This document shows, piece by piece, positions 44,063 to 54,958 of a stretch of 64,000 bases of DNA. Source of the stretch: Limnochorda sp. LNt (GTDB taxonomy: Bacteria; Bacillota; Limnochordia; Limnochordales; Geochordaceae). Location: positions 186,001 to 250,000 of the forward strand of contig NZ_CP141614.1 in the NCBI RefSeq assembly GCF_035593265.1. The letters are read 5' to 3'. How positions within the stretch are numbered: position 1 is the first letter of the stretch; the number at the start of each line of letters is the position of its first letter. The position numbers and the translations under genes are program-made. The notes beneath the pieces were generated by a model that ran no database searches, was not told where the DNA came from, and saw nothing but the letters and a program-made list of their open reading frames with translations.

Positions 44063-45046
44063 CTATGCCTGGCCGCTCGACGGGAGACCGCGATAGAGCG
44101 CAGCGAGGGTCCAGGCGGCGAGGTGCAGGTCCAGCCGGCGCCGGTGCCGCAGCGCCACCAGGCTCACCCCACCGGCGGCATAGGCGGCGAGCGCGGCAGG
44201 GTGTGCCAGGGCCTCGATGGTCAGGGCGATCCAGCGGTACACGTCGAAGGCCAGGGTGACGCCCAGAAGCCCGCTGCCCATGACGTAGACCAGCGTGGCC
44301 AGCGTGAGGGCCAACCGGCGGCGGGTCGCGCCGACGGCGACGGAGGCTGCGGCGACGAGGCCCGACTCCCAGGCGGCCCCTCTCAGCGTCTCTCGGGCCA
44401 GGCGCCGGACGCACGACTCGACGGAGCCGCAGACGAGGGCCTGGTGGGCCGCGGCGCAGAGGATGGACTGAAACCGCTGGGGCATCGGCAGCGCCTCGGG
44501 GACTCCGTAGACGGCCCCCAGCGTCTCGACCAGCTCCGAGGCGAGTCCCTCCAGTCCCCGGCTGCCCTGCCGCCCATTGAGGCGGCCCTGCAGGGCGTGC
44601 AGATAGCGCACTCGCAGCGAGACGCCCCGAAGCGTCTGCAGCGCCGAGGCTTGCCGGCGCCACTCAGCCTGGAAGCGGCGAGCGGCTGTCGCGGGGCGGC
44701 GGGTACCTTCCGCCAGGTACCGGATGAGACGCCCTGCCGTAGCCGTCTCGAGCAGCGCCACGAGGGAAGCCAGCTCGTCGTCGGGCATCCGAGCGAGGGC
44801 GCCGATCAGGCTGCGTGCCACCTCGGTCGACTGTCCCGGCTGTCCACCCCGGGAGCGGCCACCTCGCCCGGTCTCCGCCGGTGCCCCCCCGAGGGCCTGG
44901 TCGAGGGAGTGGGCGAGCATGGGGTCGTACCGGGGGAGCGCGAGACGGTAGGCCCGGAGCACCTCCGGGCAGGGTGGGCTTCCCCAGACACGCACGGCCG
45001 AAGACGTTGCCCGCCTCGTGATCCTGCACCACCTGCTCCGACGCAA
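44063..45046 (-). CDS. hypothetical membrane protein
   Basis: 327 aa in the longest reading. The N-terminal two thirds are helical and charged (LAHSLDQALGG, PDDELASLVALLETATAGRLIRYLAEG). The last ~90 residues hold two or three hydrophobic helices (LALTLATLVYVMGSGLLGVTL). No family recognised. The first ~20 residues are basic and atypical, and a second frame with its own ATG at 45086 runs parallel upstream. The true start may be a GTG near 44980, or a 1-nt indel may hide the real N-terminus. Probably co-transcribed with the amidase. Confidence 0.55.
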   Translation of the reverse strand: MRRSRWCRITRRATSSAVRVWGSPPCPEVLRAYRLALPRYDPMLAHSLDQALGGAPAETGRGGRSRGGQPGQSTEVARSLIGALARMPDDELASLVALLETATAGRLIRYLAEGTRRPATAARRFQAEWRRQASALQTLRGVSLRVRYLHALQGRLNGRQGSRGLEGLASELVETLGAVYGVPEALPMPQRFQSILCAAAHQALVCGSVESCVRRLARETLRGAAWESGLVAAASVAVGATRRRLALTLATLVYVMGSGLLGVTLAFDVYRWIALTIEALAHPAALAAYAAGGVSLVALRHRRRLDLHLAAWTLAALYRGLPSSGQA

Positions 45047-45147
45047 GGGTCGTACCAGGGGATGCGGGGGCGGGCCCGTCGGCCATGCGAGGCCAGTGCT
45101 AACTTAAGGAACCCGGGACCAGCTGAGCGACGGGAGTGACGCGCTTG

Positions 45148-45172
45148 ACGTAACGCCACATGTAAGTTACGT
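45148..45172 (+). promoter_or_regulatory. inverted-repeat operator on the Clp_N gene promoter
   Basis: ACGTAAC and GTTACGT arms are separated by 11 nt. The repeat covers a candidate promoter whose -35 is TTGACG (45145-45150); the -10 candidate TACGTT (45168-45173) is weak. The geometry suits a dimeric repressor or autoregulation by the downstream protein. Confidence 0.5.
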
Positions 45173-45184
45173 TTACACCGAGGA

Positions 45185-45199
45185 ACCTCCTCGGGAGGT
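45185..45199 (+). promoter_or_regulatory. hairpin masking the ribosome-binding site of the Clp_N gene
   Basis: ACCTCC and GGAGGT form a 6-bp stem with a 3-nt TCG loop. The 3' arm is the Shine-Dalgarno sequence itself, so pairing would block initiation, as in RNA thermometers. Confidence 0.45.
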
Positions 45200-45206
45200 G
45201 ATGCCA

Positions 45207-45929
45207 TTGGTCCTGCAGAGGTTTACGGCCAGGGCCAAGCGGATCATCGAGAATGCCGTCGACGAGGCCCGGCGTCGGGGAGAGCCGGTCGGGCCCCTAC
45301 ACCTGCTGCTGGCCCTGGCACGAGACGAGACGTCGGCCGCAGCTCGCGCCCTTCGGGAGGCGGGCGTGACGCCCGAGGCGGTCGCTGGCCACCTGGTCGA
45401 GCCGGCAGACGGCACCGCCCTGCGCAAGGAGCCCCCCTTCGACCCCGAGGGCAAGCGTGTACTCGAGCGAGGCGCCCGGTGGGCCAAGGAGCTCCGGCAC
45501 CCGTACATCGGTGCCGAGCACGTGCTGCTGGCCCTGCTGGATGACGGCGCCGCGGCCGCCGCGGACGTGTGGCGGGCTCTCGGCGTCGACGTGGCCCGTC
45601 TACGGGAGCGGCTCCTCGCTCAGCCACCCGAACCGGAGGAGCGTCCGGGTCACAAGACGCAAGTCTCGTGGGTCTTCTGGCGCTCCGGGAGCGAGAGCCG
45701 TGACTGGGTCGTCAGCGTGCGGCTGGACGCCCCCACCCTGACCGCGGTGGACGCACTGGTGCGGGCCGGCGTGGCCAAGAGCCGGTCGGAGGCGGTCTTC
45801 ATGCTGTGCCGCAAGGGGATCGAGGCTCACCGCGAGCTCTTCGAGCGGCTCGCGGAGAAGATGGCCTCCGTGGCGGAGCTAGAGGAGGAGATGCGGCGCA
45901 TCTTCGCAGGAGACGGAGGCGAAACCTGA
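45207..45929 (+). CDS. Clp_N-domain protein fused to a ribbon-helix-helix-like region
   Basis: 240 aa. Residues ~1-135 contain two Clp N-terminal repeats as in ClpC (QRFTARAKRIIENA, GPLHLLLALARD; HPYIGAEHVLLALL). No AAA+ module follows. Instead residues ~165-205 read VVSVRLDAPTLTAVDALVRAG with SRSEAVFMLCRKGIEA, which fits a ribbon-helix-helix strand and two helices, then a coiled segment rich in Glu. It may be an adaptor or a repressor that senses Clp substrates. A TTG start at 45207 gives 8 nt to GGGAGG; ATG 45201 and GTG 45198 are too close. The promoter carries an inverted repeat. Confidence 0.8.
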   Translation: MVLQRFTARAKRIIENAVDEARRRGEPVGPLHLLLALARDETSAAARALREAGVTPEAVAGHLVEPADGTALRKEPPFDPEGKRVLERGARWAKELRHPYIGAEHVLLALLDDGAAAAADVWRALGVDVARLRERLLAQPPEPEERPGHKTQVSWVFWRSGSESRDWVVSVRLDAPTLTAVDALVRAGVAKSRSEAVFMLCRKGIEAHRELFERLAEKMASVAELEEEMRRIFAGDGGET

Positions 45930-45942
45930 TAGAAAAGAGAGA

Positions 45943-46033
45943 TGGTGCCGAAGGGGGGATTTGAACCCCCACGGGCGTTACGCCCACTGCGCCCTGAACG
46001 CAGCGCGTCTGCCAGTTCCACCACTTCGGCACC
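45943..46033 (-). tRNA. tRNA-Leu (anticodon CAG)
   Basis: The acceptor stem is GGTGCCG/CGGCACC with A as discriminator. The anticodon stem CTGCG/CGCAG carries loop TTCAGGG, giving CAG. A long variable arm (GGGCG-TAA-CGCCC) marks class II leucine tRNA, and the T arm is GGGGG-TTCAAAT-CCCCC. CCA is not encoded. Confidence 0.97.
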
Positions 46034-46205: not shown

Positions 46206-46982
46206 ATGCTGCGGCCCAAGGTCGAGGCCATCGTGGCCCTCTTCCAGGAGGACGGGCTCCGCACGCCGCTCGCCGCGGTGGTCGAGACCGTGCTGCTCCT
46301 GGTGGGCCCCGGTGCCACCTTCCTGACGGGCCGACGGGGCCGGCTCATGGCCGTCGCCCTCTCGCCGGGGGTCTCCCCCCACCCGCTGGACGCGCAGGCG
46401 CTCGAGGCCGGCACGCTGCCCGACCACCTGGCCGCTGCCTTCCTGCGGATCGATGCTCCCATCGCCGGCCCCGAGGCCGACGCGGTCGTCGGGGTCTCCC
46501 ACAGCGCGGTGCTGCCGGTGCGGGTCGCGGGCCGGCGGCTCGGCACCCTGCTGATGATACGGCCCCGCGCACCCTTCGATGAGGAGGACCTGGTCGTGGG
46601 CCAGGTCGCCGCCCTGGGCGCGGGGCTCGTCGTAGGCGCGGCCGTCAGCGAGGAGGGCGGCCAGGCCGAAGAGCGCCAGCGTGCCCGCATCGCCGTCCGG
46701 AGCCTCTCTTACTCGGAGGCGGTGGCGGTGCATCGCCTCCTGGACGCGCTGGAAGGCGACGAGGGGCTGCTGGTGACGAGCCGGATCGCCGATCAGGCCG
46801 GCATCACGCGCTCCATCGTCGTCAACGCGTTGCGCAAGCTGGCCTCCGCCAGCGTCATCGAGGCCCGTTCCCTGGGCGCCAAGGGTACGTATCTGCGAGT
46901 GCTCAACCGCGAGCTCCGCCGGGAACTGAGTCGCCAGCGCCTGCCCCACTTCGCCGCTCACGGGATGCACCGCCGGACTTGA
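46206..46982 (+). CDS. codY: GTP-sensing transcriptional repressor CodY
   Basis: 258 aa (B. subtilis 259). The N-terminal GAF domain (~1-150) binds branched-chain amino acids. The C-terminal winged helix (~185-245) has LLVTSRIADQAGITRSIVVNALRKL and SLGAKGTYLRVLN, which are nearly invariant in CodY. It represses nutrient-scavenging and sporulation genes when GTP and BCAA are high. A basic tail follows. Its last 80 nt overlap the antisense dinB 3' end. No hslUV/clpQY operon precedes it as in Bacillus. Confidence 0.93.
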   Translation: MLRPKVEAIVALFQEDGLRTPLAAVVETVLLLVGPGATFLTGRRGRLMAVALSPGVSPHPLDAQALEAGTLPDHLAAAFLRIDAPIAGPEADAVVGVSHSAVLPVRVAGRRLGTLLMIRPRAPFDEEDLVVGQVAALGAGLVVGAAVSEEGGQAEERQRARIAVRSLSYSEAVAVHRLLDALEGDEGLLVTSRIADQAGITRSIVVNALRKLASASVIEARSLGAKGTYLRVLNRELRRELSRQRLPHFAAHGMHRRT

Positions 46983-53747: not shown

Positions 53748-53964
53748 TGAAGAGGCCTTCGTGTCCGGTGAACTGGCAGACGCAGCACCGGACGTCCATG
53801 GCAGGGCGATCCCCGCGGGACAGCGGCAGCAGCTCGTCGGCGGCGTAGAGCACCTGTCCGGTAGCGGGGTCCTTCTGGACCTCCTGGACGAAGTGGAAGA
53901 TGAGCTCGAATCGGCTCCGGTTGCCCTGGCAGCCGGGGCACAGGTAGGGACGCTGGTGATCCAT
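53698..53964 (-). CDS. small zinc-binding protein
   Basis: 88 aa. CPGC near the N-terminus and CCVC near residue 60 suggest one treble-clef or ribbon zinc site around a helical middle (FELIFHFVQEVQKDP). The ATG at 53964 is 11 nt from CGGGAG. Function unknown. It sits antisense within an otherwise plus-strand operon and overlaps tsaC by 50 nt, which slightly lowers confidence. Confidence 0.6.
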   Translation of the reverse strand: MDHQRPYLCPGCQGNRSRFELIFHFVQEVQKDPATGQVLYAADELLPLSRGDRPAMDVRCCVCQFTGHEGLFIKAARRNAPPALQRPS

Positions 53965-54001
53965 GACGTCGTTCACTCCCGAGCCCGATGGCGTGGATAG
54001 C

Positions 54002-54958
54002 ATGCCCCAGACGGCAGGGCGAGGCGGGGAGGCCTCGCCGGGCGGGGCCATCCTCTTCGTCTGCTCGGGCAACACGTGCCGCAGCCCGCTGGCGGCTGCT
54101 CTCTTCCGCAAGGCATGGCGCGAGAAGGGAGGTGCCGTGCCCCTCGAGGCCGAGTCGGCAGGGTTGAGCGCCCGAGACGGAGAACCGGCCAGCCAGCAGG
54201 CCCGGCAGGTAGCGCAGGAATGGGGCGTCGACCTCGCCTCGCATCGCGCACGCCTGCTGACCCGTGAGCGGCTGGTGACGGCCCGACTGGTCCTGACCAT
54301 GACGGAGGACCACAAGCGGCGGGTGCTGGCCATGGCGCCGGAGATGGCGGGGCGGGTCTATACGCTGGGGGAGTATGCGGGGTCCCCGCGCGACGTGGAG
54401 GATCCCTTCGGTCAGGAGCTCGAGCGATACCGTGCGACGGCACGCGAGCTGGAGTCGCTGACCCGTCTGGCGGCGAGCCGCCTGGAGCGGGAGAGCCGGC
54501 AGGCCAGCGGGGTCCGTGCGGTCGCCGTGGGTTGGGACCATGCCGGGCGGCTCCTGCGCGACGCGGTAGTGGAGACCCTCCGCGAGGAGGGGTGGGTCGT
54601 CGAGGAGCACGGCCCGGCCGAGGGGGGGGCGGTCGACTACCCCGACGTGGCCCTGGAGGTGGCGCGGGCGGTGGCGGCCGGACGGGTCGCCTTCGGCGTG
54701 TTGATGTGCGGCACCGGCATCGGGATGAGCATCGCCGCCAACAAGGTGCGAGGGGTGAGGGCCGCGCTCTGCCACGACCCGTACTCGGCCCGCATGGCCC
54801 GAGCCCACAACGACGCCAATCTCCTGGCCATCGGGGGCCGGGTGGTGGGGCCCGCGGTGGCCGCCGAGGTGGTGAGGGCCTTCGCCCGGGGCAGCTTCGA
54901 GGGAGGGCGTCACGCCCGCCGGGTCGACAAGATCGCGCGCATGGAGGACGGAGCGTGA
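54002..54958 (+). CDS. fusion of low-MW protein tyrosine phosphatase and ribose-5-phosphate isomerase B
   Basis: 318 aa. The N-terminal LMW-PTP (~14-165) has the P-loop CSGNTCRS (nucleophile Cys21, Arg27) and the general acid in DVEDPFG. In Firmicutes such proteins (YwlE) act on protein arginine phosphate. The C-terminal RpiB (~170-318) has [22 protein letters not shown] (Cys236) and [14 protein letters not shown] (His269), and interconverts ribose-5-P and ribulose-5-P. The two are adjacent separate genes in Bacillus and are joined in frame here without a stop. The ATG at 54002 lacks a good SD; 53963 is an alternative. Confidence 0.9.

What the first reader, a model, noticed from the sequence alone, without database searches (positions are those of the whole stretch)
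45207..45929. Stand-alone Clp_N double repeat joined to a ribbon-helix-helix-like domain
The N-terminal substrate-recognition domain of ClpC lacks its AAA+ motor and is followed by a segment with the spacing of an RHH DNA-binding dimer. ClpC N domains recognise adaptors and arginine-phosphorylated proteins. This could be a sensor-repressor that reads protein damage and acts on DNA. The phosphatase-like YwlE homologue (54002) lies in the same window.
Basis: inference. Interest (0 to 1): 0.62.

Follow-up and report, generated by a model that had tools for sequence, protein, structure and literature searches.

The report
ClpC sensor domain fused to DNA-binding domain
A bacterium carries a small protein that joins the part of the ClpC protein-destroying machine that recognises its targets to a DNA-grip, and it very probably switches its own gene off until something that binds ClpC turns up; mycobacteria have a comparable switch of different build (ClpC2).

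Summary
The gene at 45207-45929 (TTG start, good ribosome site) encodes 240 aa: a ClpC-type double Clp_N domain (residues 3-137, no AAA+ motor), a linker, and a ribbon-helix-helix (RHH) domain (165-208) that runs on into a long helix. RHH rests on Pfam RHH_1 in all four orthologues, a PHROG repressor family, an AlphaFold strand-helix-helix (core pLDDT 90-95) and structural matches that are mostly RHH proteins. The fusion occurs in all four held genomes of one family (Limnochordaceae) and in no other genome searched. Two relatives carry two Clp_N pairs before the same RHH.

The inverted repeat CGTAAC-N11-GTTACG (45149-45171) overlaps a promoter-like sequence and is one of two such sites in the 3.02-Mb genome. 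CGTAA-N5-TTACG occurs exactly once in each of two relatives' genomes, just upstream of the orthologue, even where the neighbours differ. So it is most likely an autorepressor whose Clp_N part senses a ClpC ligand. Ligand and derepression are inferred. Arginine-phosphate as the signal is only half supported: one binding Glu is kept, the other lost. The YwlE neighbour is irrelevant. It works like mycobacterial ClpC2 but fails ClpC2's defining features: a new architecture for a known principle.

The parts
45207..45929 (+). gene for the 240-aa Clp_N x2 - RHH fusion protein (TTG start, stop codon included)
   Evidence: orthologues
45213..45617 (+). ClpC-type N-terminal domain (two Clp_N repeats, residues 3-137)
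   Evidence: Pfam Clp_N 6.4e-22, 2 stretches; PDB ClpC/ClpC1 NTD 1.5e-20; Foldseek prob 1.00
45618..45698 (+). linker (residues 138-164), low-confidence in the model and poorly conserved
45699..45830 (+). ribbon-helix-helix domain (residues 165-208): strand WVVSVRL 167-173, helix A 175-186, turn, first part of helix B from 193
   Evidence: Pfam RHH_1 in 4/4 orthologues; PHROG 4738; AlphaFold; Foldseek and VIA-align matches to MazE, ParD, NikR, ArtA, HicB
45831..45908 (+). continuation of helix B (residues 209-234), predicted long helix, possibly for dimerisation or tetramerisation
45149..45171 (.). candidate operator: inverted repeat CGTAAC-N11-GTTACG
   Evidence: 1 of 2 CGTAA-N3..13-TTACG sites in the genome; same words in an inverted repeat upstream of orthologues
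45145..45173 (+). weak promoter-like element TTGACG-17-TACGTT overlapped by the operator (read by eye)
   Evidence: parallels TTGCCG/TTGCGG-17-TACGAT upstream of the orthologues in G002/G003; not flagged by the consensus scan
45194..45198 (+). ribosome-binding site GGAGG
44063..45046 (-). divergent uncharacterised gene, probably a membrane protein, that shares the intergenic region; may be co-regulated
   Evidence: conserved neighbour (39% identity) in G001 only
45943..46030 (-). tRNA-Leu(CAG), convergent neighbour, conserved in G001; not part of the system

Best explanation
A self-regulating repressor built from a ClpC N-domain (ligand sensor) and an RHH DNA-binding domain. The RHH dimerises and binds CGTAA/TTACG half-sites over its own promoter, keeping expression low (RHH fold and operator: well supported; binding and repression: inferred). 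When molecules that normally dock on the ClpC N-domain accumulate (unfolded or arginine-phosphorylated proteins, adaptors, or ClpC-targeting peptide antibiotics), they occupy the Clp_N part. DNA binding is lost, and the protein is made in quantity, sensing and probably also sequestering the ligand away from ClpC (inferred by analogy to mycobacterial ClpC2).
For: RHH. ClpC-type N-domain without motor. Operator: the inverted repeat at 45149-45171 is one of two CGTAA-N3..13-TTACG sites in the genome, the other lying in the coding sequence of a dehydrogenase-like gene (read by eye). CGTAA-N5-TTACG occurs once in the whole genome of G001 and once in that of G003, both times directly upstream of the orthologue start; G002 has CGTCA-N5-TTACG there. 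In G002/G003 the gene sits between different neighbours, so the site goes with the gene. Dinucleotide shuffles give such a pair in 0.1-0.3% of cases. The RHH is more conserved (65-88% identity) than the whole protein (41-60%), with 42 of 69 RHH positions invariant. F80, K85 and E89 (cyclic-peptide contacts in Mtb ClpC1 according to PMC10030653 and PMC12583610) and E106 (pArg1) are kept in the window protein. Precedent: ClpC2 represses itself and is released by cyclomarin A (PMC10030653).
Against: No binding or expression data. Half-site spacing differs between the window (N11-13) and relatives (N5), so the exact operator geometry is uncertain, and part of the right half-site could be conserved as a -10 box (TACGAT). 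E32 (pArg2) and F2 are lost, so the domain does not keep every known ClpC ligand site. The Clp_N part diverges faster than the RHH. The Foldseek E-values for the RHH model are individually weak (best 0.4). The full-length model has low confidence in the linker and last helix.
Confidence: 0.55

Rival explanations
1. Proteolysis-coupled repressor: the Clp_N part does not sense a small ligand but docks ClpC adaptors or McsB, bringing the repressor to ClpCP for regulated degradation, so stress removes the repressor.
For: ctsR-mcsA-mcsB-clpC is present in the genome. Clp_N domains bind adaptors such as MecA (solved complexes among the matches).
Against: The Clp_N part is the recognising module, not a degron; attaching it to a repressor would make it compete with ClpC for adaptors. 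The relatives' doubling of the Clp_N pairs fits ligand capture better.
Confidence: 0.15
2. Mainly a decoy or sponge for ClpC ligands (peptide antibiotics, phage proteins, adaptors) whose RHH serves only to set its own level.
For: The only intergenic operator found in the genome is its own. Two relatives have doubled Clp_N pairs. ClpC2 acts as a sponge for cyclomarin (PMC10030653).
Against: One copy per genome, F2 lost, and module 1 in G002 has lost F80 and E89. It differs from the best explanation only in emphasis.
Confidence: 0.15
3. Regulator of the divergent membrane-protein gene (44063-45046) or of other genes, with the Clp_N part as a protein-protein contact module unrelated to stress.
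For: The divergent gene shares the intergenic region and is a conserved neighbour in G001.
Against: In G002/G003 the neighbours differ but the operator words remain upstream of the fusion gene.
Confidence: 0.1
4. Degenerate ClpC fragment with a chance RHH-like tail and no DNA-binding role.
For: The RHH_1 match in the full-length scan lies just under the cut-off (17.9 against 20.5 bits).
Against: Strong conservation of the C-terminal domain across two genera, RHH matches in 4/4, AlphaFold and structure matches, and recurring operator.
Confidence: 0.04

Closest known systems
Mycobacterial ClpC2 (Rv2667 and relatives; PMC10030653)
   Same: ClpC N-domain homologue without AAA+ motor; probable autorepressor with a palindromic operator at its own promoter; ClpC still present separately.
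   Different: ClpC2 is a dimerising four-helix N-terminal domain followed by Clp_N, with DNA contacts from Arg185/Arg189 of the Clp_N part. Here Clp_N comes first and an RHH last; the Arg pair is not conserved; the operator words differ (CGTAA/TTACG against CGTCAAC/GTTGACG); the lineage is Limnochordaceae. The Clp_N part scores higher against ClpC1 (76 bits) than against ClpC2 (39-59 bits).
ClpC N-terminal domain (Bacillus ClpC, Mtb ClpC1)
   Same: Fold and about 35-40% identity; K85 and the pArg1 Glu106 kept.
   Different: No AAA+ rings, M-domain or ClpP contact; pArg2 Glu32 and Phe2 lost.
RHH/CopG-type repressors (ParD, MazE, NikR, CopG)
   Same: Strand-helix-helix fold; NikR is also an RHH with a ligand-sensing domain.
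   Different: RHH is C-terminal here and the sensor is a Clp_N double repeat; no toxin partner gene was seen next to it.
CtsR
   Same: A repressor in the ClpC/McsB circuit (established knowledge).
   Different: CtsR has its own fold and no Clp_N; the genome encodes it separately near mcsB and clpC.
AbmR (NF058631)
   Same: Weak similarity to the C-terminal region (27 bits).
   Different: Far below the family cut-off (160 bits); not a member.

Membership tests
ClpC N-domain (Pfam Clp_N PF02861) | two Clp_N repeats over the curated cut-off | tested here: met
   77.9 bits against 20.7, two stretches; ClpC-NTD fold
ClpC unfoldase | two AAA+ domains after the N-domain | tested here: not met
   240 aa, no AAA+ family hit; separate full-length ClpC in the genome
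ribbon-helix-helix superfamily (RHH_1, PF01402) | sequence match to the RHH profile | tested here: met
   C-terminal part 21.5 bits, cut-off 20.5 (full length 17.9, below); 4/4 orthologues match, best 1.1e-5
ribbon-helix-helix superfamily (RHH_1, PF01402) | strand-helix-turn-helix fold | tested here: met
   (Z up to 5.8; most of the list are RHH proteins, though single scores are weak)
ribbon-helix-helix superfamily (RHH_1, PF01402) | intertwined dimer with two-stranded ribbon in the DNA major groove | not testable with these tools
   only monomer models available
ClpC2 (actinobacterial) | N-terminal four-helix dimerisation domain before Clp_N | tested here: not met
   Clp_N starts at residue 3
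ClpC2 (actinobacterial) | Arg185/Arg189 DNA-contact pair in the Clp_N part (ClpC1 positions 93/97 by offset from F172=F80) | tested here: not met
   window R and E, G001 E and K, read from the alignment; positions from PMC10030653
ClpC2 (actinobacterial) | cyclomarin residues F2, F80, E89 | tested here: inconclusive
   F80 and E89 kept, F2 is Leu
ClpC2 (actinobacterial) | palindromic operator at its own promoter | tested here: inconclusive
   a recurring inverted repeat is present, but its sequence differs from CGTCAACn5GTTGACG and binding is untested
pArg-reading ClpC N-domain | both Glu32 (pArg2) and Glu106 (pArg1) | tested here: not met
   E106 kept in all modules; E32 is Leu here, Glu in G001, Pro/Tyr in G002. 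One site may still work.
AbmR (NF058631) | score over the equivalog cut-off | tested here: not met
   25-27 bits against 160

The most novel reading that the evidence does not exclude
An independently evolved one-protein proteostasis sensor: a bacterium has fused the ClpC substrate-recognition domain to an RHH repressor, so that the load of ClpC clients, arginine-phosphorylated proteins or ClpC-targeting toxins is converted directly into transcription, without the protease or CtsR.
Probability: 0.4. Interest if true: 0.7.

Novelty: new variant of a known kind. Interest (0 to 1): 0.52.

Why it matters
If right, it shows that turning a ClpC N-domain into a transcriptional sensor evolved at least twice with different DNA-binding modules (ClpC2 in actinobacteria, RHH fusion in Limnochordaceae). 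That would argue that bacteria repeatedly need to sense ligands of the ClpC N-domain. It gives a compact, testable reporter for such ligands (arginine-phosphorylated proteins, adaptors, ClpC-targeting antibiotics).

Tried and rejected
YwlE co-location as evidence: rejected; it is an LMW-phosphatase/RpiB-like fusion next to a Sua5-type gene 8 kb away. Membership in ClpC2 and AbmR: rejected (see membership test). TyrRS-like C-terminal hits (SYY_C-terminal; G009 and G006 matches): the G009 match is the S4-domain end of a tyrosyl-tRNA synthetase, an incidental short match; G006 was not read. Wider distribution: relatives, order, a 398-genome phylum sample, plasmids, phages and viral contigs gave no further fusion. 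The genome-contig scan with the RHH alignment found only the Limnochordaceae Bu05 MAG, but it needs near-exact short peptides and cannot exclude distant relatives. Small stand-alone Clp_N ORFs in other genomes have no RHH. The consensus promoter scan did not flag the promoter read by eye. Sequence search of the RHH alignment against PDB gave nothing convincing.

Full report
What is there. The ORF at 45207-45929 starts with TTG 8 nt after GGAGG (45194-45198) and encodes 240 aa. Upstream in-frame ATG/GTG codons at 45201 and 45198 lie too close to, or inside, the ribosome site, so 45207 is the best start. Pfam finds two Clp_N repeats (E 6.4e-22) and RHH_1. The Clp_N part (residues 3-137) matches solved ClpC/ClpC1 N-domains by sequence (1.5e-20) and by structure (Foldseek probability 1.00). 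There is no AAA+ segment. The genome has its own full-length ClpC in a locus with McsB, CtsR and an McsA-like ORF between them (by eye).

Is the tail an RHH? The full-length RHH_1 score is just under the cut-off (17.9 against 20.5 bits), but the C-terminal part alone passes (21.5), all four orthologues match (best 1.1e-5), and PHROG 4738, a phage repressor family, matches at 9.1e-7. AlphaFold on the C-terminal part gives an extended strand (WVVSVRLD), helix 175-186, turn and helix 193-234, with pLDDT 90-95 in the helices. Foldseek and VIA-align list mainly RHH proteins (MazE, ParD, NikR, ArtA, HicB). Single scores are weak, as expected for a 45-residue fold; the agreement of the list is the evidence.

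Distribution. The fusion is present once in each of the four held genomes of the window's family: G000, G001 (same genus, 56-60% identity) and G002/G003 (another genus; G003's locus corresponds to the Limnochordaceae Bu05 MAG, contig JADBKR010000002.1). It is absent from the ten other genomes of the order and from the remaining relatives searched with the RHH alignment (101 genomes). In a 398-genome phylum sample the matches listed elsewhere end in or just after the Clp_N part; one exception, G439, was read and is a ClpC-type sequence (the list is truncated). In G002/G003 the protein carries two Clp_N pairs before the same RHH. The RHH is the most conserved part: 65-88% identity to the window, 42 of 69 positions invariant, while the whole protein has 41-60%.

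Operator. In the whole 3.02-Mb genome CGTAA-N3..13-TTACG occurs at two places, this one and one inside a dehydrogenase-like coding region. The reversed control pattern occurs three times per strand, so a site somewhere in the genome is expected by chance, but not in this position. Asked next in the relatives, CGTAA-N5-TTACG occurs exactly once in G001 (4.5 Mb) and once in G003 (2.9 Mb), each time just upstream of the orthologue (about -83 and -64 from the start); G002 has the one-base variant CGTCA-N5-TTACG. G002 and G003 are close to each other and count as one case. In dinucleotide shuffles of each upstream region a CGTAA/TTACG pair appears in 0.1-0.3%. G002/G003 have other neighbours than the window, so the site follows the gene. 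By eye the right half-site overlaps the -10 position of TTGACG-17-TACGTT in the window and of TTGCCG/TTGCGG-17-TACGAT in G002/G003. That suits repression by occlusion, but also means part of this half could be conserved as a promoter. The consensus scan did not call this promoter.

What could it sense? Aligned with 44 ClpC N-domains, the window protein keeps T7, F80, K85, E89 and E106 but has lost F2 (Leu), T81 (Asp) and E32 (Leu). E32 and E106 are the pArg2 and pArg1 glutamates (PMC12583610); F2, F80 and E89 are cyclomarin contacts (PMC10030653). So one pArg site may work, and the hydrophobic groove is partly kept. Of these positions only K85 and E106 are kept in all modules examined. The signal therefore remains open among pArg-proteins, unfolded clients, adaptors and ClpC-targeting peptides.

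Comparison. ClpC2 of mycobacteria is the closest known system: a motor-less ClpC N-domain protein that represses its own gene at a palindromic operator, is released by cyclomarin A and then acts as a sponge (PMC10030653); later work confirms the cyclomarin response and its limits (PMC12913811). The present protein fails ClpC2's defining features (four-helix dimerisation domain in front; Arg pair for DNA contact) and has a C-terminal RHH instead. Its Clp_N part scores higher against ClpC1 than against ClpC2. Convergent origin is therefore likely but not shown by a tree. No paper on a Clp_N-RHH fusion was found in the open library, which misses most subscription journals.

Shown: gene, both domains, family-restricted fusion, rare operator-like repeat recurring at orthologous promoters. 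Inferred: dimerisation, DNA binding, autorepression, ligand release, sponge action.

Noticed in passing
L040 6182-7342 and L042 (G002/G003): Relatives carry two Clp_N pairs in one protein before the same RHH; the first pair has lost E32, F80 and E89 equivalents but keeps E106.
   Followed up: partly
L037 1099-1575 (-), L038 1245-1721 (+), L035 1494-2276 (-): G002, G003 and G005 encode further small stand-alone double Clp_N proteins without an RHH.
   Followed up: no
L102 (G371:C89:5800-7400): A 186-aa stand-alone double Clp_N protein with an N-terminal hydrophobic segment that looks like a membrane anchor.
   Followed up: no
window 46206-46982 (+): CodY-like regulator (HTH_CodY 9.5e-24, weaker CodY GAF match) downstream of the fusion gene and the tRNA-Leu, conserved there in G001.
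   Followed up: partly
window 53963-54958 (+): LMW protein phosphatase (YwlE-like) apparently fused to an RpiB-like isomerase domain in one ORF.
   Followed up: no
L040/L042, about 100 bp inside the fusion gene: A perfect palindrome GGTTACGTAACC lies within the coding sequence in both G002 and G003, plus extra TTACG words at -155 and -118; possible further half-sites.
   Followed up: no
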